Source of the DNA: Desulfobacteraceae bacterium 4572_89
Lineage (GTDB): Bacteria > Desulfobacterota > Desulfobacteria > Desulfobacterales > Desulfobacteraceae
Direction: 5' to 3'
DNA: 16,722 nucleotides
Assembly: GCA_002085465.1 (NCBI GenBank)
Contig: NBML01000049.1
Location: 1-16,722 of the forward strand
Shown here: one piece after another, positions 1 through 16,722 of the stretch
Layout: every line of letters begins with the position of its first letter
How positions within the stretch are numbered: position 1 is the first letter of the stretch
The notes under the pieces: generated by a model
Told to the model about the DNA's origin: nothing
The model's input: only the letters and a program-made list of their open reading frames with translations
Databases searched by the model: none
Translations under genes and position numbers: made by a program

Positions 1-1739
1 CATTCCAGGAATTTTTTCAATCAGGTCAATGAAAGCCTCAGGGGCTATAGCCTGGTTTTGGAAAATGTTGAAAAAATATACAAAGACACAAGTTCCCGTT
101 TGATTGTCATTGCCACCCACATGCACGCCGGCGACGGAAATGTCCATGTGAATATCCCTGTTTTGTCCAATGACAGGGAAATGATGGACCGGGCCAAGAG
201 TACGGCTGACAAGGTCATGGAAAAGGCTGTTGCACTGGATGGTGTGGTTTCCGGGGAACATGGAATCGGTGTTACCAAATTTAAATATCTGGACCAGGCT
301 GTGATTGATGAATTTACTGCCTATCGAAAGAAGATAGATCCGGACGGTCTCATGAATCCAGGTAAGCTCAGGGAAAAAAATATCCATACCCGGGTTTTTA
401 CCCCTTCCTTTAATCTGCTTGAACTGGAAGCCAGGATATTAAAGCACGGATCATTGTCCCACCTGGCTCTGGATATTGCCAATTGTGTCAGGTGCGGCAA
501 ATGCAAGCCCCAGTGTCCTGTATTTTATCCTGCCAAGAACATGTTTTTTCATCCAAGAAATAAGAATCTGGCCATTGGAGCCCTGATTGAGGCTCTGCTC
601 TATATCACCCAGCGCACCCAGTCCACTGGCTTTAAAATACTCAAAAACCTGGAACAAATTGCCGATCATTGTACCATCTGTCATCGCTGCCTGGTAAAAT
701 GCCCCGTGAACATTGATTCTGGAAAAATTTCAATCAAAGAGCGTGAAATTCTGAAAAATATGAAATTCAATGGCACAGCTCTTTCCACCAGGATGGCCTT
801 AAAATATCTGGGCACCCGGAATGAGACTTTGAACCAGGTGCTCAGGCCGGCTCTTATGGGTGGGGGTGCTTTTCTTCAGAGAACCGGATCAAAAATCACG
901 CCTTTTTTTTCATTTATCCGTCCTTTGAAAAAAACCAGGCCGTTCCAGCTTTTGCGAAGTCCAATGCCCATACCTGGAAATGTAACCCTGGGATACTATC
1001 TTCCCAAAACCTTAAAAAATCAGGCCATACTGCTGGAGCCTGAGGGCATGGCAGTATCCACGGTTTTTTATTTTCCAGGATGCGGCAGTGAAAGAATTTT
1101 TTCCAGGATATCCATGGCATCTATTTTTCTGCTTCTCTCCAATAACCACAGGGTTGTCCTGCCTCCGCCCTATTTGTGCTGCGGATACCCCCTGAAGGTA
1201 AATGCCAGGAAAAAAGAGTTTGGTAAAATTTTTCTTGAAAATATTATTATTCTGACCCAGATACGGGATATGTTCCATGACCTTGAATTTGAGTCCCATG
1301 GGATTTGCCTTGTTTTTACCATGCCCCCTGCCACGATTCCCTGAAAGAAAAGGCCATGCCCTTGCTCCTGGGTCAGGGTATGGATGTCCAGGCCGTACCC
1401 CATTGCTGCTCCGAGGCTGGGACTTTGGCTATTTCCCGGCCGGATATCAGCCATGCCATGCTTTCTCGGAAGCAGAAGGCCGTAAAAGAGGCTGTGCAGG
1501 GTCAGGGTTCTGGCCCAGGAATTCGGTCTGGTACAGGAGCAGGTTCTTTTCCAGGTGCAGGACAGGGGAGAAAAAGGAAAATTCTGACCAACTGTCCTTC
1601 CTGTGTTCAGGGACTTGGCAGGCAGGCAGATCTTTTACCGGTTCACCTGGCAGAAGAACTGGCCCTGTTGACAGGGGGAAAAGACTGGGTTCAGAAGTTT
1701 AAGAACCTGGTAAGCTCCTGGGAAAAGGTGAGTTTTTAA
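1..1739 (+). pseudogene. FAD-linked oxidase / 4Fe-4S / CCG-domain oxidoreductase, 3' part, frame-disrupted
   Basis: The reading frame is open from the window edge, so the 5' part (FAD-binding half) lies outside. The first ~100 codons match the C-terminal FAD-linked oxidase domain of the GlcD/D-lactate dehydrogenase type (HMHAGDGNVHVN; GVVSGEHGIG). Two 4Fe-4S motifs follow (CVRCGKCKPQCP, CTICHRCLVKCP), then a CCG domain (FPGCGSE, CCGYP). Near 1296-1304 the homology leaves frame 1, which stops at 1344, and resumes in frame 3 with YHAPCHDSL, PHCCSEAGTL and LTNCPSC, ending at the TAA at 1739. The closing CxxC of the first CCG domain is absent. By family knowledge some 40-50 codons lie between these blocks, so I infer a deletion plus frame change, not a single-base slip. 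Known relatives are membrane-associated 2-hydroxyacid oxidoreductases feeding electrons to heterodisulfide-reductase-like partners; the substrate here is unknown. A Gly-rich stretch at about 1495-1575 is unusual. The stop is 2 nt before rsmE. Confidence 0.8.
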
Positions 1740-9666: not shown

Positions 9667-9906
9667 ATGATTTTGGGCGTAGCCCTCCGAAAAATCAATA
9701 CCAGCTCTCCAGTTCCGGCTGGATATCTAAATATTGGAGCTCGTTTCCTGTCGGATCTTGAAAACGGTAAACCTACTGTCCAGTTGGAAAAGGTCTTACA
9801 TGCGTTGAACGGTCTCGGGTTTAAGGTAATTGCTGTACCAAAGGCAAGCCACAAACTAATCCGCTATATTGAATTATTTTTGCAGACGTACCCGGATGGG
9901 GCATGA
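9667..9906 (+). pseudogene. HipB-like (XRE/y4mF type) HTH antitoxin-type regulator, damaged remnant
   Basis: The segment GYLNIGARFLSDLENGKPTV followed by QLEKVLHALNGLGFKVIAV is a clear match to HipB/y4mF-type XRE regulators (recognition helix and dimer part). The preceding MILGVALRK fits the start of helix 1. The middle, where KRR-x-LGLTQ-x-ELA is expected, reads INTSSPVPA and is short, so helices 1-2 appear rewritten by indels. The ATG at 9667 has no good Shine-Dalgarno, while an ideal one (9565-9570) is stranded upstream. The last codons (LQTYPDGA) read antisense into the 3-hydroxyacyl-CoA dehydrogenase remnant, so the natural C-terminus is lost at a junction near 9884-9893. No hipA-like kinase follows. 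It is probably non-functional. Confidence 0.65.
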
Positions 9907-10126
9907 CATCCACCACATTGGTAATGGCACAATCGTGGAAATGCAGAGCGGCAAACCGGTCCGGCCGACATGTGGCATCCGCAATCATGGAGGGTACCAG
10001 GGTGGAGGAGTTGGTGGTAAAATAAATGGTCACGTCAAACCCTGAACATGCACAGGTCAACCCGATCTGCAGACCCATGGTCCCGGCGCCCAAAATTAAT
10101 ATGGTTTTTATCTTATGTTCACTCAT
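9887..10126 (-). pseudogene. 3-hydroxyacyl-CoA dehydrogenase, N-terminal remnant with internal deletion
   Basis: The remnant starts at ATG 10126 (MSEHKIKTILILGAGTMGLQ) with the NAD-binding GxGxxG motif and a preceding GGAGAA Shine-Dalgarno. After GFDVTIY it jumps directly, still in frame, to FTTNSSTLVPSMIADA and ALHFHDCAITNVVDVMPHPG. Family members have about 70-90 residues between these blocks, containing the NAD ribose-binding acid and the ESVPED-type segment. The junction is near 10020-10025, with a short ATTT repeat that could have served as microhomology. The homology ends after HPGTS near 9887, where it runs into the HipB-like remnant on the other strand, so the whole substrate-binding C-terminal domain is gone. 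The enzyme would oxidise 3-hydroxyacyl-CoA with NAD+ in beta-oxidation; this copy cannot. Confidence 0.82.
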
Positions 10127-10324
10127 AATTTTCTCCAAGCAGGAATCCACGGCATTCCCCTTTTAAACCTAGTGCCATGGAGCAGGTGCCAGAGCCATGG
10201 AATTCCATTTTTTCTTCAACCATACACATTGGACATCATTGGGTTTGTCAAAGTTTTTGTCTTCATTGATCCAGATTTTTGGGACAATAAAGATAGAGAT
10301 ACCGCGGCTACCTTTGGGTGCATC
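10119..10324 (-). pseudogene. Long-type acyl-CoA dehydrogenase (about 600-residue family), central fragment
   Basis: On the minus strand from 10324 the frame reads DAPKGSRGISIFIVPKIWIN then EDKNFDKPNDVQCV. After a frame change near 10220-10227 it continues VEEKMEFHGSGTCSMALGLK and GECRGFLLGEN. This is the central FAD/substrate-binding part of the larger acyl-CoA dehydrogenases (KMGIHGS-x-T-C and LLGE-x-N are hallmarks). The N-terminal ~220 residues and the C-terminal half are missing. The frame stops in GAGTGA, inside the start of the 3-hydroxyacyl-CoA dehydrogenase remnant. The SDR remnant abuts its other end near 10317-10324. I read it as a gene deleted on both sides, so that about 200 bp survive in the original order SDR, ACAD, HCDH. 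Confidence 0.8.
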
Positions 10325-10574
10325 CTTTTTTTGTCATTATTTTTTCGTACATGGCCTTGATCTGATCCGGATATCCGGTGTGGCAGGCCATGGCTTCTGC
10401 TTTATACCCTTTTTCCCTGATTCCGGCTGCTGCAGTTTCCAAATTATCAGCTTTCCGGTTCACCAGGATACATTGTGCCCCGTATTTGGCAAGTTTCCGG
10501 GCTACGGCCAGGCCAATGCCCATGCTGGCACCCGTGATAACTGCGATTTTTCCTTCCAGGTTAAACTCTTTCAT
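10308..10574 (-). pseudogene. Short-chain dehydrogenase/reductase, N-terminal remnant
   Basis: From ATG 10574 (MKEFNLEGKIAVITGASMGI) the protein has the classical SDR cofactor motif TGASMGIG and a Rossmann start through IREKGYKAEAMACH to YEKIMTKKG, about 84 residues of the usual ~255. It then reads CTQR into the acyl-CoA dehydrogenase remnant and stops. The NNAG motif, the catalytic Ser and the YxxxK are all missing, so no activity is possible. GGGGAA about 8 nt upstream is a fair Shine-Dalgarno, and the gene follows the acyl-CoA ligase by 19 nt, so it was the next gene of the operon. By analogy with LvaD it might have interconverted a keto- and a hydroxyacyl-CoA; that is inference. Confidence 0.85.
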
Positions 10575-10593: not shown

Positions 10594-12207
10594 TTATTTT
10601 TCTTCCCTGAGTTTATATTTTAAAACCTTGCCGGTTGGATTTCTTGGAAGCTGATCTATTATTTCTATAAATTCCGGAATTTTATATTTTGCCAGTTTGT
10701 CTTTAAGATAATCTGCGATCATTTCAGGGGTAAGGCCACCCGGTTCTGAGGGTTCAATAAGGGCTTTAACCCTCTCCCCCAGTGAGGTATCCGATACTCC
10801 GATCACTGCCACAGCCATGACACCGGGATGGGTTTCAATGACCATTTCAATTTCCCTTGGATAAATATTTTCACCGCCTCGATTGATCATATCCTTTTTT
10901 CGGTCAACAACAAATAAGAAACCATCTTCATCCAGATAGCCGATATCACCGGTATGCAGCCATTGGTCAATCATTGCCTCGTCAGTCGCTTTTGAATTGT
11001 TCAGATACTCAATCATGCTATTGGCCCCCTTGATACAGACTTCCCCTTTTTCGCCCGGAGCCATTATTTTGTTATCGGAGCCCATGATTTCAATTTTCTG
11101 ACCCGGCAAGGCCAGGCCGCAGGAACCAGGCTTTCTCTTCCCATCGGGCGGATTGACAGATGAAACCCCTGTGCCCTCTGTAAGCCCATAGCCTTCAATG
11201 ATTTCAACATTAAATTTTTCTTTAAATCCATTGATCAGGTCAACGGACAAGGGGGCAGCCCCACTGAAAGCAAATTTTAATTTCAGGTTCGATATATCCA
11301 GGCTTGAAGCATCAATTGAATAATAGACATAATTATACATGGCCGGCACACCCATGAGGATAGTAATATTATTTTCCAGGATCGCAGGCCAGAAATCTGC
11401 AGGCGAAAAAGCTTTTCGGATGCAGAGGGTCTGTCCCATAAAAGTCAATGGATAGGTCCATACACTGATGGGATTAATATGATACATGGGAAGCAGAACC
11501 AGCATGGTCTCATTGTTGCTTGTAACCAGGCCGATAACCGACATGTCGCGGCATATATCAAGTTGCCCCTTATTGGACAGCAAAATACCTTTGGGCAGGC
11601 CCGTGGTTCCCGATGAATAGGAAAGAAGAAAGGGATCCGATGATTTTTGAGGCACCAGAACTTCGTCTGCCGGATAAAGGTTCAGAATATCTGAAAGCTT
11701 TTGTTGGGCAATATCAGAATGATGTTCAGCATCTGTCTTAACTTCCACTACCACAGGTTTGTGAACAGCCTGGTCATAGCCCTTGGAAAAAGGTTCCATG
11801 AATTCACTGCCCACAAATACAATTTTTGGTTTTGAATCATCAAGAACATGGGCTATTTCCGGTCCCATCAAGGCAAAATTGATCACCCCTGCAATGGCAC
11901 CGATTTTCTGGGCACCAAACATGATATAATATATTTCAGGTGAGTTTGAGACCATCAAAGATACTACATCACCTTTTTGGGTTCCTTTTTCTTTAAGATA
12001 ATTGCCCACCTTGTTTGCCCGTTCATTTGTCTGCGCATAGGTAATTTTTTGATCATAATAGATGACATGAACTCTTTCCGGTATTTCCTGGGCCCTGACC
12101 GTAAACATTTGGGCGATGCTGTCAAACTCTAAACGCTTATTTTTTAACGCAGCCACATTTTCAAGTTTAGAAACCGGCATTTTTATTTTTTTTATTTGAT
12201 TTTTCAT
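10594..12207 (-). CDS. Acyl-CoA synthetase (AMP-forming, class I adenylate-forming enzyme)
   Basis: The protein carries all core motifs: the P-loop SSGTTGLPKG (residues 198-207 from the start chosen here), GYGLTEGTG, the hinge block HTGDIGYLDEDGF and VVDRKKDMINRGGENIYPRE, and the C-terminal lysine in PRNPTGKVLKY. It makes acyl-AMP from a carboxylic acid and ATP and transfers the acyl group to CoA in the cytosol. The chain-length preference cannot be read from the sequence. ATG 12207 is preferred over ATG 12225 because AAAGGA lies about 9 nt before it, whereas 12225 has only a weak GAAAG; the longer form would add six residues. It follows the phosphotriesterase-family gene by about 50 nt and precedes the SDR remnant. 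In an LvaE-like role it would activate a 4-hydroxy- or 4-oxoacid. It appears intact. Confidence 0.92.
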   Translation of the reverse strand: MKNQIKKIKMPVSKLENVAALKNKRLEFDSIAQMFTVRAQEIPERVHVIYYDQKITYAQTNERANKVGNYLKEKGTQKGDVVSLMVSNSPEIYYIMFGAQKIGAIAGVINFALMGPEIAHVLDDSKPKIVFVGSEFMEPFSKGYDQAVHKPVVVEVKTDAEHHSDIAQQKLSDILNLYPADEVLVPQKSSDPFLLSYSSGTTGLPKGILLSNKGQLDICRDMSVIGLVTSNNETMLVLLPMYHINPISVWTYPLTFMGQTLCIRKAFSPADFWPAILENNITILMGVPAMYNYVYYSIDASSLDISNLKLKFAFSGAAPLSVDLINGFKEKFNVEIIEGYGLTEGTGVSSVNPPDGKRKPGSCGLALPGQKIEIMGSDNKIMAPGEKGEVCIKGANSMIEYLNNSKATDEAMIDQWLHTGDIGYLDEDGFLFVVDRKKDMINRGGENIYPREIEMVIETHPGVMAVAVIGVSDTSLGERVKALIEPSEPGGLTPEMIADYLKDKLAKYKIPEFIEIIDQLPRNPTGKVLKYKLREEK

Positions 12208-12260
12208 GGCAATTTTTCCTTTCATAAACTTTCAAGATTGCATCAGGCCTGAAATTTCAA

Positions 12261-13247
12261 TCATACAGCAGAAAAAATCCTTCCCGGATTGCCCTTGATT
12301 ATGGTTTCGATCTGTTCGTCGGTTACCCCGCCTTGTTTAAGGGCAGGAATAATATTATTAAACAAATGGGTGGGATGCCAGTTGGCGATCAGGGGGAAGG
12401 CTTCTTCAGGAAGGTTAAGGGGACGACCCAGCCATTGAATAATATAATCATGGGAGAGCATCAGTTTGTCAGCAAACCCTTTTTTAATCAGGTCAATAAT
12501 AACGGCATACCGCTGTTCGTCCATGGGGCAGCCCACAAGTCCCTGAAGCCCCATCCGGTCCCAGGAGACATAAACGCCATGTTCCAGGGTTTCAAGTTGG
12601 TAATTTATATCCAGACTGTCGCTCATATGGCCTATTTGTATTTTTGCAGGATCAACCCCCTCAGAGATTAAAAGTTTGGCCTGCTCCGGTCCCATGGTCC
12701 CTTCCTGGGTATGGGTAATAATAGGAACACCTGTATCCTTTTGTACCCTGGCTGCGGCTGTAAACATCATCTTTTCATAGTCTGTGATAACGCCTTTGCT
12801 GGAGCCCACTTTTATTACACCTGCCTTGATACCCGTATCCCTTATGCCGGTTGTGATTTCCGCCATGAACAGGTCATAGATTTCCTGGCTGATATCTCCC
12901 AGGCTGCCTCGAAATTTCCAATAGGCTGAAGATCCTTCGCCTTCAAAATAGTACCCTGTTGAACATATGATATTGATCCCTGTTTTTTCTGAGACTTCTT
13001 TGTAAACTTCAGGGCATCGCCCGCTGTCATTGGTTGTGGCATCCACATATGTTGTCAGGCCAAGGACTTTGAGTTGATTTAACACGTCCACTCCCTGGCT
13101 GACAGCAGCCTTGGAATCAAAGGGAGCAATGGTCTGGTCTCCTTCCCAGCCTGGATAGCCAAATAAAAGGTGTTCATGCATCAATGTAGTCCCCAGTTCA
13201 TCGGATGAAACAGGTCCTGTGACAGTATTTACCATTGTTTTCTCCAT
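12261..13247 (-). CDS. Phosphotriesterase-family metal-dependent hydrolase (possible lactonase)
   Basis: This 328-residue amidohydrolase-fold protein has every metal ligand of the phosphotriesterase family: the HxH pair His24/His26 (LMHEHL), the lysine that becomes carboxylated (Lys146 in GVIKVGSS), His179 (IITHT), His207 (IGHMSD) and Asp267 (LSHDY). The DRMG motif at 230-233 matches the D-R-x-G loop of phosphotriesterase-like lactonases, whose Arg contacts the lactone. The binuclear site is therefore complete, and the natural substrate is more likely a lactone, ester or amide than an organophosphate. Mammalian PTER, an N-acetyltaurine hydrolase, shows the family is broader than lactones. AGGAG lies 8 nt before the ATG. 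The location between an APH kinase and an acyl-CoA ligase suggests it produces a hydroxyacid for CoA activation. There is no signal peptide, so it is cytosolic. Confidence 0.88.
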   Translation of the reverse strand: MEKTMVNTVTGPVSSDELGTTLMHEHLLFGYPGWEGDQTIAPFDSKAAVSQGVDVLNQLKVLGLTTYVDATTNDSGRCPEVYKEVSEKTGINIICSTGYYFEGEGSSAYWKFRGSLGDISQEIYDLFMAEITTGIRDTGIKAGVIKVGSSKGVITDYEKMMFTAAARVQKDTGVPIITHTQEGTMGPEQAKLLISEGVDPAKIQIGHMSDSLDINYQLETLEHGVYVSWDRMGLQGLVGCPMDEQRYAVIIDLIKKGFADKLMLSHDYIIQWLGRPLNLPEEAFPLIANWHPTHLFNNIIPALKQGGVTDEQIETIIKGNPGRIFSAV

Positions 13248-13275
13248 GATTCAGTCTCCTTTTTTAAATTTTAAG

Positions 13276-13289
13276 TAAACGCTTGTTTA
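13276..13289 (-). promoter_or_regulatory. Candidate TetR-type operator TAAAC-N4-GTTTA
   Basis: A perfect 5-bp inverted repeat with a 4-nt spacer lies between the APH kinase stop and the phosphotriesterase-family start, about 30 nt before that ATG. It closely fits the PsrA (TetR family) pattern AAAC-N2-4-GTTT known from Pseudomonas fatty-acid regulation. The TetR gene two genes upstream is the obvious candidate. It suggests an internal regulated promoter for the downstream half of the operon. I saw no equal copy in the short gaps before the ACAD or TetR genes. Confidence 0.45.
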
Positions 13290-13293
13290 AAAA

Positions 13294-14361
13294 TCATAAA
13301 TCAGACGACTCAATGACTTTGAGAGCCGTTTTTTCAAGGCCGATTACAGCAAAAATTAACATGGCAAACCGCTTGTTCTTTGTTATTTTATGAAAAAAAC
13401 GGTAATAAATCTGCTGGGCAATGACGGCCAGCCGGAACAGGCCAAAGCAATAATAAAAGTCAAACTGCTGCGTACTTCTTCCGGTTCGTTTTTCATAATG
13501 ATCCAGGATTTCCCGTCGTGTCAGGGCACCTGGCATATTGGTGGGCAGGGTCCGCATCATCTGCATCTCGTCGGGATCATTTTTTTCCACCCAATAGGCA
13601 AGGGAGTTGCCAAGGTCCATTAAAGGATCTCCATGGGTTGCCATTTCCCAGTCAAGGACCCCAATAATTTTCTCAGGCCTGTCAGGGTCCAGAACCACAT
13701 TGTCAAGTTTGTAATCATTATGCACAATGGTAGGCTGTTCTGTGTCCTGGGGCATTTTTTCCCTGAGCCATGCCATGATGAATTCACAATCCGGTGCATC
13801 ATCGGTTTTTGCCGCGCGGTACCGGCTGCTCCATCCTTCCACCTGGCGTTGAACATATCCTTCAGGTTTCCCGATAAAATCAAGGCCGGCTTTTTTTACA
13901 TCAATGGCATGTATATCAGCCTGAAAATTTGTGAGTGTCCTGCACAAGTTTTGGGCCTGTCCCTTTGAAAAAGAAAGGCCTTTGGGCAGGTCCTTTCTAA
14001 GGATGATACCGGATAATTTTTCCATGACAAAAAAAGGGCTTCCCATGATGGCAGTGTCTTCGGTATATGCCAGGGGTTTAGGACAGTATGGAAATATGGG
14101 ATGCAGGGCTTTGAGGATTTTGTATTCCCGCCCCATGTCGTGACCTGCCTTTACCTTGGCGCCGATGGGGGGCCGTCGCAGCACCATTTGCCTGCCGCCC
14201 ATGTTAATTAAATAGGTCAGGTTGGAAAATCCGCTGGGAAATTGGGAAATGGCCATATCACCGGTCAGACCCTCTATATTTTCCAGTAAAAATGTTTTGA
14301 CCGCCCCAGGGTCAATTTCCTCTCCCGGCCGGATTGTCCCTGCCTTGTCTGTTTCCTGCAT
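13294..14361 (-). CDS. APH-family phosphotransferase, ACAD10/ACAD11 kinase-domain type
   Basis: The protein (355 residues from ATG 14361) is an aminoglycoside-phosphotransferase-like kinase. It has a small N-lobe with MVLRRPP and GREYKIL, a hinge near FFVMEKL, the catalytic HNDYKLDN (residues 214-221) and the metal-binding DWE (237-239) followed by HGDPLMDLG. This form is the one found as the N-terminal domain of animal ACAD10/ACAD11 and as LvaA in Pseudomonas, where it phosphorylates the 4-hydroxyl of 4-hydroxyacyl-CoA. An antibiotic-resistance role is unlikely in this context. ATG 14361 is chosen over ATG 14385 because AGGGG sits 6 nt before it and no ribosome-binding site precedes 14385. 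The gene lies 30 nt after the TetR gene. The separate ACAD gene just beyond encodes the matching ACAD domain. Confidence 0.9.
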   Translation of the reverse strand: MQETDKAGTIRPGEEIDPGAVKTFLLENIEGLTGDMAISQFPSGFSNLTYLINMGGRQMVLRRPPIGAKVKAGHDMGREYKILKALHPIFPYCPKPLAYTEDTAIMGSPFFVMEKLSGIILRKDLPKGLSFSKGQAQNLCRTLTNFQADIHAIDVKKAGLDFIGKPEGYVQRQVEGWSSRYRAAKTDDAPDCEFIMAWLREKMPQDTEQPTIVHNDYKLDNVVLDPDRPEKIIGVLDWEMATHGDPLMDLGNSLAYWVEKNDPDEMQMMRTLPTNMPGALTRREILDHYEKRTGRSTQQFDFYYCFGLFRLAVIAQQIYYRFFHKITKNKRFAMLIFAVIGLEKTALKVIESSDL

Positions 14362-14391
14362 GATTTCCCCTTTTTTTGTTTCCATTGACGT

Positions 14392-15057
14392 CTATACCCG
14401 GCAGAAAGCCGCCACCATATCCATTATATGATCTGCGAACTGATCCACTGATATTTTTAATTTTTTGTATTTCCATTGTTTCAAATACCATTCCTGCTGC
14501 ATGGCCTTGATGATACTGGCTGTCAGGTGATGATTACCGGGTTTGAAGATACCTTGTTTTTCTCCTGTTTCAAGAATATCCGTGAGCATTTTCTGGGTAT
14601 GATTTTCCATGGATTTAACCGCTGCAATATTTCTGGCTTCCATAAAGGTGAAAAAAAACCAGGGCCGGAATAATTCAGACAGAAAAATATGGGCTTTTAT
14701 AACAGCTTTCAGCTTTTCCCAGGGTGCTTCATGTGTTTTTGCAACCTGTTCAATATCTTTTTCTATAATGGACCACCCCTGGGTCTGTATGATACCCAAA
14801 AGGTCATTTTTGCCCTTAAAATAGTCATATAAGGACCCCAGGCTCATGCCGGTCTGTTGACTTAAATCTCTCATGCTCATGGATTGAAAGCCCTTTTTAT
14901 AGGAGATATAAAACACGGCATTAAAAATTTTTTCCAGATTATTGACAGCGGTCTTTTCCTTTTTTATCCGTATGAAGCCCTGGTTGTTGCGATAGACTTC
15001 ACGGGAAATATCAATGCTTGAAGCGCCATATATCTTTGTAAACTCTTTAAAATCCAT
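14392..15057 (-). CDS. TetR/AcrR-family transcriptional regulator
   Basis: This 221-residue protein has a roughly 40-residue N-terminal extension, then a TetR DNA-binding domain (LEKIFNAVFYISYKKGFQSM and SMRDLSQQTGMSLGSLYDYF, the helix-turn-helix with the typical LYDYF-K-K-like end). A helical ligand-binding domain follows, rich in Trp/Phe (RPWFFFTFMEARNI). Regulators of this form in acyl-CoA operons usually repress until a CoA thioester binds; ligand and sign of regulation are unknown here. The start ATG at 15057 has AGGA upstream, and the gene lies 17 nt after the ACAD gene, inside the operon it probably controls. The long N-terminus reads as coding and is a plausible family feature. The TAAAC-N4-GTTTA element near 13280 is its candidate site. 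Confidence 0.88.
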   Translation of the reverse strand: MDFKEFTKIYGASSIDISREVYRNNQGFIRIKKEKTAVNNLEKIFNAVFYISYKKGFQSMSMRDLSQQTGMSLGSLYDYFKGKNDLLGIIQTQGWSIIEKDIEQVAKTHEAPWEKLKAVIKAHIFLSELFRPWFFFTFMEARNIAAVKSMENHTQKMLTDILETGEKQGIFKPGNHHLTASIIKAMQQEWYLKQWKYKKLKISVDQFADHIMDMVAAFCRV

Positions 15058-15074
15058 CTGGGGTTCCTGAATAA

Positions 15075-16277
15075 TTATTTTATTTTATTGTATGTTTTTA
15101 AAATCCGCCTTGCCAGGGATGCTTTATGGACCTCATCTGCTCCGTCATAAATTCTGGCTGCACGTTCATGGCGGTAAAAATAGGCCAGAATGGTATCATC
15201 AGTCATTCCCAAACCCCCGTGGGCCTGTAAAGCCCTGTCCACAATCTTGTTCATGGTGTTGGCCACTACAAATTTGATCATGGAAATGGAATCCCGTGCC
15301 TGGGCAGCACCCATATGATCAATCTGCCAGGCGGAATTAAGGGTTAAGAGCCTTGCAGCCTGGAGTTCAGCTGCAGATTCTGCAATCCAGTTCTGGATGG
15401 TCTCTGTACTTCCAAGAGTCTTTCCTGAAGGCGAAATCACCCGATCATTCGCCCGCTGGCACAGAAGGTCAAAAGCACGCTGGCAGATGCCCAGCCATCG
15501 CATGCAATGGTGGATTCTTCCCGGTCCCAGCCGGTCCTGGGCAATGACAAATCCCTGGCCTTCGGGTCCCAGAAGGTTTGTTTGCGGCACCCGGCAGGAT
15601 TCAAACAGGATTTCTGCATGGCTTGAATAATCACTGCCTTCATGACCCATGACCGGGATATTTCTGACCAGGTTAAACCCTTTGGTGCCAGTGGGAACGA
15701 TGATCATACTGGCCTGAAGATAGGTGGAGGCATCCGGGTTGGTAACGGCCATGACAATGGCAAAATCCGCCCCATCAGCTGCCGTGGTATACCATTTGTG
15801 ACCATTGATGACATAATCATCTCCATCCTTTACTGCTGTGGTTTCCAGCATGACAGGGTTGGAGCCCGGCATATCCACCTCGGTCATGGCAAAGCAGGAC
15901 CGGATATCACCTTTTACCAGAGGAGTAAGATAGCGCTGTCTTTGTTTCTGGGTCCCATGAAGGTGCAGGATTTCAACATTACCGGCATCGGGAGCCTGGC
16001 ACCAGAAGACATAATGCCCTAAAGGAGATCGGCCCAACGCTTCAGACACAAGACCGTGTTCCAGCAGTGAAAGTCCCATCCCCCCACACTCAACAGGAAA
16101 ATTAGGGGCCCACAATTCCATTTTTTTGACCACGTCCTGTTTTTTCTTGAGCACTGGCAGCAGATCTTTAAAATCCTTTGCCAGAAATTCCGGTTCCAGG
16201 GGAATGAGTTCTTTTTCTACAAATTCATTGATCATTGCCACAATGGTTTGAATCTTGTCTGAAATCTTAAAATCCAC
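15075..16277 (-). CDS. Acyl-CoA dehydrogenase, ACAD10/ACAD11-like
   Basis: This 400-residue flavoprotein has the full acyl-CoA dehydrogenase fold: an N-terminal helical domain, a middle beta domain with CFAMTEVDMPGS (128-139) and KWYTTAA, and a C-terminal helical domain. The signature GPGRIHHCMRW (251-261) and the end RIYDGADEVHKASLA are hallmarks of the ACAD10/ACAD11/LvaC branch. Asp378 in YDGADE occupies the place where classical enzymes such as MCAD carry the catalytic Glu (YEGT). In the known branch members the enzyme works with an APH kinase to turn 4-phosphooxyacyl-CoA into an enoyl-CoA, leading to 3-hydroxyacyl-CoA. The start is GTG 16277, with AAAGGAG 6 nt upstream. The product looks intact and heads the TetR-APH-hydrolase-ligase series. 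Confidence 0.92.
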   Translation of the reverse strand: MDFKISDKIQTIVAMINEFVEKELIPLEPEFLAKDFKDLLPVLKKKQDVVKKMELWAPNFPVECGGMGLSLLEHGLVSEALGRSPLGHYVFWCQAPDAGNVEILHLHGTQKQRQRYLTPLVKGDIRSCFAMTEVDMPGSNPVMLETTAVKDGDDYVINGHKWYTTAADGADFAIVMAVTNPDASTYLQASMIIVPTGTKGFNLVRNIPVMGHEGSDYSSHAEILFESCRVPQTNLLGPEGQGFVIAQDRLGPGRIHHCMRWLGICQRAFDLLCQRANDRVISPSGKTLGSTETIQNWIAESAAELQAARLLTLNSAWQIDHMGAAQARDSISMIKFVVANTMNKIVDRALQAHGGLGMTDDTILAYFYRHERAARIYDGADEVHKASLARRILKTYNKIK

Positions 16278-16300: not shown

Positions 16301-16402
16301 TTAGGCCCTATGTTCCTCATCCCTGAGAACCCGTCGTAAGACCTTACCAATATTTGATACGGGAATTTCATCCCTGAATTCAATGACTTTTACTGTATAA
16401 TG
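16301..16402 (-). pseudogene. C-terminal stub of a FadD-like acyl-CoA ligase
   Basis: On the minus strand the frame reads VKVIEFRDEIPVSNIGKVLR then RVLRDEEHRA and a stop at 16301. This is the C-terminal cap of long-chain acyl-CoA ligases, including the catalytic lysine in NIGKVLRR. The other ~500 residues are absent. The frame instead fuses near 16395-16402 with the end of etfA, in a different reading frame. I infer a large deletion between etfA and the ACAD gene. It cannot make a functional product. Confidence 0.78.
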
Positions 16403-16722
16403 TTAAAAAGGCCGGGATAAATTCAAGAACATCTTCTACAATGCAAAGGTCTGAATGGAGAAAGATGGGGGCGGATGGATTTTCATTGATACTGATCACA
16501 AATTTGGCATCCTTCATTCCGGCGATATGCTGGGAAGAACCTGAAATGCCGCAGGCAATATAAATTTCAGGTGCTACCATGGCACCGGTGATACCCACCT
16601 GGTGTTCATATCCAATCCAGCCCCTGTCCACCAGGGGGCGGGACACGCCCACACTGGATGAAGAAAGGCTTTCGGCAAATTTAAAAATCAGGGTGAGGTT
16701 TTCTTTCTCACCAATTCCCTGG
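16380..16722 (-). CDS. etfA: Electron transfer flavoprotein alpha subunit, C-terminal part (partial at window edge)
   Basis: The frame is open to the window edge, so the N-terminus lies outside. The visible part, about 113 residues, carries the FAD-binding domain of EtfA: SSVGVSRPLVDRGW, EHQVGITGAMVAPEIYIACG, ISGSSQHIAGM and ISINENPSAPIF. EtfAB accepts electrons from acyl-CoA dehydrogenases, so its position directly before the ACAD operon is logical. The usual ending E-x-IPAL-x-E-x-I is replaced after FIPA by FLTLYSKSH and a TGA at 16380. The last natural residues seem to have been cut by the deletion that removed the neighbouring ligase gene. Only a few C-terminal residues are altered, so the protein may still fold. 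Confidence 0.88.
   Translation of the reverse strand, partial: QGIGEKENLTLIFKFAESLSSSSVGVSRPLVDRGWIGYEHQVGITGAMVAPEIYIACGISGSSQHIAGMKDAKFVISINENPSAPIFLHSDLCIVEDVLEFIPAFLTLYSKSH

What the first reader, a model, noticed from the sequence alone, without database searches (positions are those of the whole stretch)
10594..16277. Possible gamma-lactone / 4-hydroxyacid degradation operon: hydrolase, ligase, APH kinase and ACAD10/11-like dehydrogenase
Seen: a complete phosphotriesterase-family metal site with a DRMG loop, a class I acyl-CoA ligase, an APH kinase with the HNDYKLDN and DWE motifs, an ACAD with the GRIHHCMR signature, and a TetR gene, all on one strand with short gaps. Known: LvaA/LvaC/LvaE of Pseudomonas and the ACAD10/ACAD11 fusions degrade 4-hydroxyacids through 4-phospho-acyl-CoA; some phosphotriesterase-like enzymes are lactonases; as I recall, Mycobacterium tuberculosis places php (Rv0230c) beside fadE4 and a TetR gene. 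Inferred: the hydrolase opens gamma-lactones and so adds a front end to the 4-hydroxyacid route. I do not know of this full combination being described for a sulfate reducer.
Basis: partly seen in the sequence, partly recalled or inferred. Interest (0 to 1): 0.75.

Follow-up and report, generated by a model that had tools for sequence, protein, structure and literature searches.

The report
Lactone-opening genes joined to 4-hydroxyacid pathway
In a bacterium related to Desulfobacterota, a gene that looks able to open ring-shaped fats (lactones) sits in one operon with genes that look able to prepare the opened molecules for ordinary fat breakdown, which suggests a testable everyday job for a lactonase family whose natural role is unclear.

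Summary
Observation confirmed: five intact co-directional genes, 6-46 bp apart, at 10594-16277 (ACAD, TetR, APH kinase, PTE-family hydrolase, acyl-CoA ligase). The hydrolase is nearest PLL-B lactonases: eight of eight named GkaP residues kept, 55% identity. The ACAD keeps the ACAD11 phosphate-pocket residues and catalytic Asp, not human Pro463. The kinase resembles the ACAD11 kinase domain.

Interpretation partly supported. ACAD-TetR-kinase is a widespread module; hydrolase+ligase is a separate pair (adjacent in 14 of 23 loci; background 10 of 439 ORFs). They are joined in the window, its sister G002 and, in other gene orders, G762 and G1386. The join is rare: 1 of 80 kinase loci; hydrolase in 1 of 86 genomes of G002's family. 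Genome-wide co-occurrence loses significance once ACAD number is controlled. The operon's tail (SDR, ACAD, 3-hydroxyacyl-CoA dehydrogenase) survives in the window only as remnants. The nearest characterised hydrolase prefers delta-lactones, so 'gamma' is inferred.

Lactonase+ligase+TetR (Rhodococcus qsd) and kinase+ACAD (lva, ACAD10/11) are known separately; joining them looks like a new variant. No activity was shown here.

The parts
16380..16721 (-). C-terminal part of electron transfer flavoprotein alpha subunit (cut by the window end)
   Evidence: Pfam ETF_alpha E 9e-26; ETF genes lie divergently upstream of the same cluster in L148; an ETFA-like gene is in the same locus in L006, L007, L015, L019, L027
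16313..16390 (-). possible C-terminal remnant (26 aa) of a FadD-type acyl-CoA ligase; L002 keeps about 215 N-terminal residues of such a ligase just before its ACAD
   Evidence: tblastn 42% over 26 aa, E 0.03 (weak); L002 2158-2796 E 4e-29
15075..16277 (-). ACAD10/11-LvaC-like acyl-CoA dehydrogenase (proposed 4-phosphoacyl-CoA phosphate-eliminating enzyme); R249, R254, H257, R260, D378
   Evidence: best PDB hit human ACAD11 2wbi E 1e-85; residue check
14392..15057 (-). TetR-family regulator (proposed local repressor)
   Evidence: Pfam TetR_N E 3e-8, TetR_C_24 E 1.5e-6
13294..14385 (-). APH-fold kinase like the ACAD11 kinase domain and (by the papers' homology) LvaA; proposed 4-hydroxyacyl-CoA kinase; HNDYKLDN at 222, LDWEMA at 244
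   Evidence: Pfam APH E 5e-51; PDB 9o56 E 4e-90, 3dxp E 7e-48, ACAD11 8v3v E 9e-47; motifs
12261..13247 (-). PLL-B-type phosphotriesterase-like lactonase; metal ligands H24, H26, K146, H179, H207, D267; lactonase residues Y100, R231
   Evidence: PF02126 E 2e-63; top PDB hits include GkaP 3tn3 (named GkaP) and DR0930 3fdk, E about 1e-118; residue map
10594..12225 (-). class I acyl-CoA ligase (AMP-binding), proposed hydroxyacid-CoA ligase
   Evidence: Pfam AMP-binding E 2e-77; nearest NCBIfam PRK06187 at 447 bits, below its cut-off of 476; close relatives in G762 and G732 at 758 and 615 bits
10323..10574 (-). remnant: first 84 aa of the SDR that follows the kinase in several relatives
   Evidence: tblastn 81% over 84 aa, E 3e-41
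10131..10321 (-). remnant: aa 219-282 of a 603-aa acyl-CoA dehydrogenase (two overlapping pieces in two reading frames)
   Evidence: tblastn E 1e-15 and 2e-11
9869..10135 (-). remnant: aa 8-45 and 128-178 of a 3-hydroxyacyl-CoA dehydrogenase (PRK08293 type)
   Evidence: tblastn E 1e-15 and 2e-25; Pfam 3HCDH_N E 1.5e-12; PRK08293

Best explanation
A fat-degradation operon in which two modules that usually stand apart have been joined. Proposed path: the hydrolase opens an alkyl-substituted lactone to a hydroxyacid; the ligase makes its CoA thioester; the APH kinase phosphorylates the 4-hydroxyl of 4-hydroxyacyl-CoA; the ACAD expels phosphate in an internal redox cycle to give 2-enoyl-CoA; ordinary beta-oxidation follows. 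The TetR protein probably represses the operon and is released by a lactone or acyl-CoA ligand. Shown here: gene identities, catalytic residues, selection, gene order and its recurrence. Inferred: every reaction, the substrate ring size, the regulation, and that all five act on one substrate. In the window the local downstream beta-oxidation genes are broken, so those steps would have to be supplied from elsewhere in the genome, which is not held.
For: Hydrolase: all six metal ligands plus Tyr99 and Arg230 of GkaP are conserved, 55% identity over 324 residues to chain 3tn4; it is far closer to GkaP/DR0930 (E about 1e-118) than to the 'Phosphotriesterase homology protein' 4if2 (2e-55), 2vc5 (4e-46; SsoPox by recall) or the best chains named Parathion hydrolase / Phosphotriesterase of the true-PTE kind (5e-44, 9e-41); PLL-B are called exclusive oxo-lactonases (PMC4323659, passages). 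ACAD: R626, R631, H634, R637 and D753 of mouse ACAD11 match R249, R254, H257, R260 and D378. Kinase: ACAD11 E 9e-47 over the kinase domain. Linkage: hydrolase and ligase adjacent on the same strand within 300 bp in 14 of 23 loci with hydrolase score >=400 bits, against 10 of 439 background ORFs. Hydrolase joined to ACAD-TetR-kinase in G002 (ACAD-TetR-APH-PTE-LIG-SDR-ACAD-HCDH), G1386 (ACAD-TetR-APH-LIG-PTE) and G762 (PTE-ETF divergent from HisPhos-ACAD-TetR-APH-LIG). Leaving out G002, 2 of 10 order genomes that hold both genes have them within 10 kb; chance about 9e-4. On the hydrolase tree the joined label needs 3 changes, at least 2 by well-supported branches. Precedent: gamma-caprolactone is degraded by QsdA lactonase + QsdC ligase under a TetR repressor.
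Against: The join is rare: hydrolase near 1 of 80 kinase loci (flanks up to 10 kb, many cut by contig ends); in 1 of 20 and 0 of 13 kinase-bearing genomes (E<=1e-20, 1e-30); in 1 of 86 genomes of G002's family (E<=1e-90); absent beside the kinase in the closest kinase relative L001, where SDR follows 49 bp later. In the other 8 of the 10 order genomes that hold both genes, they are on different contigs; these are drafts and some contigs are short, so the distance is not always known. ACAD presence by genome, 10 of 12 hydrolase-positive vs 34 of 100 hydrolase-negative (p 0.0014), becomes 9 of 10 vs 21 of 31 (p 0.17) among genomes with 17 or more ACAD candidates, a cut chosen after seeing the data. 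Hydrolase neighbours vary: HpaB, aldo/keto reductase, DUF7064 plus two ACADs, CoA-transferase. GkaP prefers delta-lactones and the ACAD10-dependent intermediate was seen with 4-OH only. Human Pro463 is His88 here. The joined label is not significantly clustered on the tree (34 of 500 shuffles as low). No operator evidence.
Confidence: 0.6

Rival explanations
1. Two modules that merely share an operon: the ACAD-TetR-kinase core handles 4-hydroxyacids made inside the cell, for example from oxidised lipids, while the hydrolase-ligase pair serves a different lactone or ester whose product never meets the kinase (for example delta-lactone to 5-hydroxyacid).
For: The core is common without the hydrolase; the hydrolase-ligase pair is common without the core (14 of 23 adjacent, of which 2, L111 and L163, are joined to the core); GkaP prefers delta-lactones, and 5-hydroxyacyl-CoA needs no kinase to enter beta-oxidation (general knowledge); genome co-occurrence is not significant after the ACAD-number control.
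Against: Three different gene orders join them, hard to expect by chance; in L002, and perhaps the window (weak), a second ligase beside the ACAD is truncated while the pair's ligase is intact, as if the pair's ligase now serves the core.
Confidence: 0.25
2. The hydrolase is not a lactonase in vivo but another PTE-family activity, such as a phosphotriesterase or an amide/ester hydrolase.
For: GkaP has weak phosphotriesterase activity, and hydrolase neighbours vary between genomes.
Against: Tyr100 stands where bdPTE/OpdA have Trp, and the Tyr99 mutants of GkaP had reduced delta-decanolactone hydrolysis (PMC4338136, passages); closest solved relatives are PLL-B.
Confidence: 0.1
3. A decaying locus: deletions show the operon is on its way out and no longer works as a pathway in this lineage, or some junctions are assembly errors.
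For: Three deletion junctions and a truncated end within 9869-10574; possible ligase remnant at 16313-16390; another gene of the window also looks frameshifted near 1300-1344 (by eye).
Against: The five genes are intact with dN/dS 0.06-0.15 against L002.
Confidence: 0.1

Closest known systems
lva operon of Pseudomonas putida (LvaA kinase, LvaC ACAD, LvaE ligase)
   Same: Separate kinase and ACAD genes plus acyl-CoA ligase; the same proposed 4-phosphoacyl-CoA chemistry (as described in PMC12440821 and PMC11342911, passages)
   Different: Here a lactonase and a TetR gene lie inside the operon and the SDR survives only as a remnant. The lva paper itself was not held, and no Lva protein sequence was compared directly
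ACAD10 / ACAD11 (mammalian fused kinase-ACAD)
   Same: Kinase-domain and ACAD homology, HCMR motif, upstream Arg, catalytic Asp
   Different: Two separate genes; Pro463 position is His; no HAD domain. A histidine-phosphatase gene sits beside the ACAD in 18 of 30 related loci, but none was seen in the window (tblastn)
qsd operon of Rhodococcus erythropolis (QsdA, QsdC, QsdR)
   Same: Lactonase + acyl-CoA ligase + TetR repressor for gamma-lactones (PMC6476934, PMC6262395, passages)
   Different: Here the lactonase is PLL-B-like (QsdA as a PLL-A member is recalled), TetR lies co-directional inside the operon rather than divergent, and kinase plus ACAD are added; neither 'acyl-CoA dehydrogenase' nor 'phosphotransferase' occurs in the main text of PMC6262395
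GkaP (Geobacillus kaustophilus) and DR0930 PLL-B lactonases
   Same: 55% identity to chain 3tn4 of the GkaP set, all named active-site residues
   Different: Phe101, Trp229, Met232, Leu234 replace Tyr, Phe, Phe, Ile of chain 3tn4 near the pocket (3tn4 may itself be a variant); substrate range unknown

Membership tests
PLL-B phosphotriesterase-like lactonase | binuclear metal ligands (GkaP H23, H25, K145, H178, H206, D266) | tested here: met
   window H24, H26, K146, H179, H207, D267 (names; map; H26 read from the HEH motif at 24)
PLL-B phosphotriesterase-like lactonase | lactonase Tyr (GkaP Y99) in place of the phosphotriesterase Trp, and Arg230 | tested here: met
   Y100, R231
PLL-B phosphotriesterase-like lactonase | closer to GkaP/DR0930 than to PLL-A or PTE | tested here: met
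   E about 1e-118 against 2e-55 to 9e-41 by phmmer; no tree with named PLL-A/B references was built
PLL-B phosphotriesterase-like lactonase | hydrolyses alkyl gamma/delta-lactones, not AHLs | not testable with these tools
   needs an assay
ACAD10/11-LvaC group | catalytic Asp instead of Glu | tested here: met
   D378
ACAD10/11-LvaC group | HCMR motif and upstream Arg (mouse R626, H634, R637) | tested here: met
   R249, H257, R260
ACAD10/11-LvaC group | conserved Pro (human ACAD11 P463) | tested here: not met
   H88 in the window; other HCMR-type ACADs of the alignment vary here too. So it is filed as ACAD10/11-like, not as a strict ACAD10/11 member
LvaA / ACAD11-type kinase | APH-fold catalytic motifs (HNDYKLDN, DWE) and homology to the ACAD11 kinase domain | tested here: met
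   LvaA itself was not compared
LvaA / ACAD11-type kinase | phosphorylates 4-hydroxyacyl-CoA | not testable with these tools
   needs an assay
lva operon | full lva gene set (LvaA-G and LvaR, recalled) | tested here: inconclusive
   kinase, ACAD and ligase types present, SDR only a remnant; no separate search for LvaB, LvaF, LvaG or LvaR was made
qsd operon | lactonase + acyl-CoA ligase with a divergent TetR repressor | tested here: not met
   lactonase, ligase and TetR types are present, but TetR is co-directional inside the operon and kinase/ACAD are added

The most novel reading that the evidence does not exclude
The natural job of PLL-B lactonases in Desulfobacterota and some Bacillota is catabolism of environmental alkyl lactones through a dedicated CoA ligase, and in several Desulfobacterota lineages this front end has repeatedly joined the ACAD10/11-like kinase-ACAD module to give one operon that takes a gamma-lactone all the way to beta-oxidation under anoxic conditions.
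Probability: 0.4. Interest if true: 0.65.

Novelty: new variant of a known kind. Interest (0 to 1): 0.48.

Why it matters
The biological function of PLLs is stated to be unclear (PMC4323659, passage); the listings seen here treat them mainly as quorum-quenching or pesticide enzymes. A PLL-B gene sitting with a CoA ligase and a 4-hydroxyacid-type kinase/ACAD pair gives a concrete, testable substrate class. If true it would also carry the ACAD10/11 chemistry into anaerobes and give them a way to use lactones, which the mammalian papers opened with alkali to make their 4-hydroxyacid substrates.

Tried and rejected
Conserved four-gene neighbourhood across the clade: rejected; among the loci read, only G002, G762 and G1386 besides the window. 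Genome-level co-occurrence as support: dropped after controlling for the number of ACAD candidates. TetR operator: no shared palindrome in the 5 upstream stretches examined; the TetR's 42 PDB hits include no molecule named as a lactone sensor. Promoter/terminator scan: 23 promoter-like sites (13.3 expected) and 5 terminator-like sites (9.9 expected), not used. Plasmid search: 7 records; 4 regions fetched, in none of which a relative of the kinase or the ACAD was seen at E<=1e-6. A search of G415's phylum (Pseudohongiella's, so Pseudomonadota by inference) gave 0 of 299 at E<=1e-70, which shows little, as the tool warns. Structure prediction was not run because solved relatives are close. Literature: searches listed no paper that joins a PTE-family lactonase with LvaA/LvaC or ACAD10/11-type genes; the library is open-licence only and this was judged from titles and abstract starts, plus passages of six papers (PMC6476934, PMC12440821, PMC11342911, PMC6262395, PMC4323659, PMC4338136). 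No paper was read whole.

Rows left out of counts: G001, G005, G006, G007 were not used as controls because they came through their kinase; G002 was left out of the linkage and co-occurrence tests; G768 (hydrolase E 1e-93, 50% identity) was used neither as positive nor as control. Hydrolase-negative means no match at E<=1e-90; that G674-G775 belong to that call follows from handle numbering. One of the 27 ACAD matches (G767) is weak (E 8e-86, 43%). The 32 loci with hydrolase score below 400 bits (highest 348) were kept apart from the adjacency count; none had a ligase within 300 bp (L129 at 705 bp).

Full report
What is there. The window's - strand carries, in transcription order, the C-terminal part of an ETF alpha gene (16380-16721), ACAD (15075-16277), TetR (14392-15057), APH kinase (13294-14385), PTE-family hydrolase (12261-13247) and acyl-CoA ligase (10594-12225). 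The gaps between the five are 17, 6, 46 and 35 bp. All five are intact; dN/dS against L002 is 0.06-0.15, though dS is 0.8-1.1 and so only rough.

The operon used to be longer. Below the ligase, 9869-10574 aligns in order to SDR aa 1-84, a 603-aa acyl-CoA dehydrogenase aa 219-282, and a 3-hydroxyacyl-CoA dehydrogenase aa 8-45 and 128-178; G002 carries these three full length in the same order. Above the ACAD, a short stretch reads like the tail of a different, FadD-type ligase (E 0.03, weak), and L002 has about 215 N-terminal residues of such a ligase just before its ACAD (E 4e-29). Both lineages may thus have lost an older ligase while carrying the hydrolase-ligase pair. Whether the window's junctions are real or assembly errors was not tested.

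What the hydrolase is. Its best solved relatives are GkaP-type chains and DR0930 (E about 1e-118), far ahead of 4if2 (2e-55), 2vc5 (4e-46, SsoPox by recall) and PTE/parathion-hydrolase chains (5e-44, 9e-41). Over 324 aligned residues it is 55% identical to chain 3tn4. Using the residue names in PMC4338136 (passages), all six metal ligands, Tyr99 and Arg230 are kept. PMC4323659 (passages) calls PLL-B exclusive oxo-lactonases and says the biological function of PLLs is unclear. GkaP's best substrate was delta-decanolactone, so the gamma-lactone assignment is inference from the kinase and ACAD.

What the kinase and ACAD are. The kinase matches 9o56 (E 4e-90; no paper naming that entry was found), 3dxp and ACAD11 over its kinase domain (E 9e-47). 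The ACAD's best PDB hit is human ACAD11 (E 1e-85). The residues named for mouse ACAD11 (R626, H634, R637, D753; PMC12440821, passages) are R249, H257, R260 and D378; the human Pro463 of PMC11342911 (passages) is His88. ACAD10/11 needed no added electron acceptor, and in cells the ACAD10-dependent phospho-intermediate formed from 4-hydroxy but not from 5- or 6-hydroxyhexanoate.

Relatives. A scan of named genomes with the kinase kept 80 loci (of 198 that encode a relative). ACAD-TetR-kinase recurs among MAGs titled Desulfobacterales, Desulfobacterium, Syntrophomonadaceae and others; in 10 of the 19 closest loci an SDR or 3-hydroxyacyl-CoA dehydrogenase follows the kinase within 50 bp. The hydrolase was beside the kinase in 1 of 80 (L002). 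It was present in 1 of 20 and 0 of 13 kinase-bearing genomes, 33 of 395 genomes of G002's phylum at E<=1e-50, 1 of 86 of G002's family at E<=1e-90, 13 of 389 of its order at E<=1e-110, 5 of 249 in G009's phylum, 1 of 151 in G422's and 0 of 299 in G415's, all at E<=1e-70 (the last an empty answer, weak).

Linkage. Of 55 hydrolase loci annotated, 23 score at least 400 bits; in 14 of these a ligase lies within 300 bp on the same strand, in 0 of the other 32. The background in the same loci is 10 of 439 ORFs of at least 250 aa. The hydrolase shares a cluster with ACAD-TetR-kinase in G002, G762 and G1386 (3 of 55), each in a different order. Without G002, 2 of 10 order genomes holding both genes have them within 10 kb, and in the other 8 the genes are on different contigs of draft assemblies; the chance estimate is 9e-4. 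On a tree of 56 hydrolases the joined label needs 3 changes, at least 2 on well-supported branches, and is not clustered beyond chance (34 of 500 shuffles), so joining probably happened more than once, or was lost repeatedly. Genome-wide, the ACAD is present in 10 of 12 hydrolase-positive against 34 of 100 hydrolase-negative order genomes, but in genomes with 17 or more ACAD candidates the figures are 9 of 10 and 21 of 31 (p 0.17), so lifestyle may explain it. The 17-candidate cut was chosen after seeing the data.

Known parts. Lactonase + ligase + TetR repressor for gamma-caprolactone is the Rhodococcus qsd operon (PMC6476934 and PMC6262395, passages). Kinase + ACAD + ligase is the lva/ACAD10/11 route. 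Their combination was not found in ten literature searches of an open-licence library, judged from listings.

Judgement. The proposed function is the best single reading, but rests on homology and on a small number of joined loci, with a real ring-size doubt. I call it a new variant of a known kind.

Noticed in passing
L148 7182-8006; L171-L174, L177, L179-L186, L189-L192, L198: A histidine-phosphatase-superfamily gene sits beside the ACAD10/11-like gene in 18 of 30 related loci, several of which have short flanks (Pfam His_Phos_1 for L148). It might remove phosphate from stalled phosphoacyl-CoA, as was first supposed for ACAD10's HAD domain. Not seen in the window.
   Followed up: partly
window 1-1739: The first gene (by eye an FAD-linked oxidase with iron-sulfur/CCG domains, not searched) seems broken by a frameshift near 1300-1344; the remainder appears to continue in another frame to 1739.
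   Followed up: no
L178 (G684) 1498-2739 and 2743 onward: A tandem second acyl-CoA dehydrogenase (664 bits to a reference ACAD) next to the HCMR-type one lacks the HH[CA]MR motif as searched.
   Followed up: no
L113, L119, L150: Other hydrolase genes of this family lie near ACAD genes without the HH[CA]MR motif and, in L113, a DUF7064/7065 protein, hinting at further lactone pathways.
   Followed up: partly
L199 5152-7972 (Paracoccus versutus plasmid pBEN): A ligase gene about 320 bp upstream of a 47%-identical hydrolase, same strand, on a plasmid typed as conjugative.
   Followed up: partly
L195, L196, L197: ACADs from G009's phylum (hydrolase-positive genomes) carry ITHAMR in place of IHHCMR at the substrate helix, next to a kinase and an SDR.
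   Followed up: no
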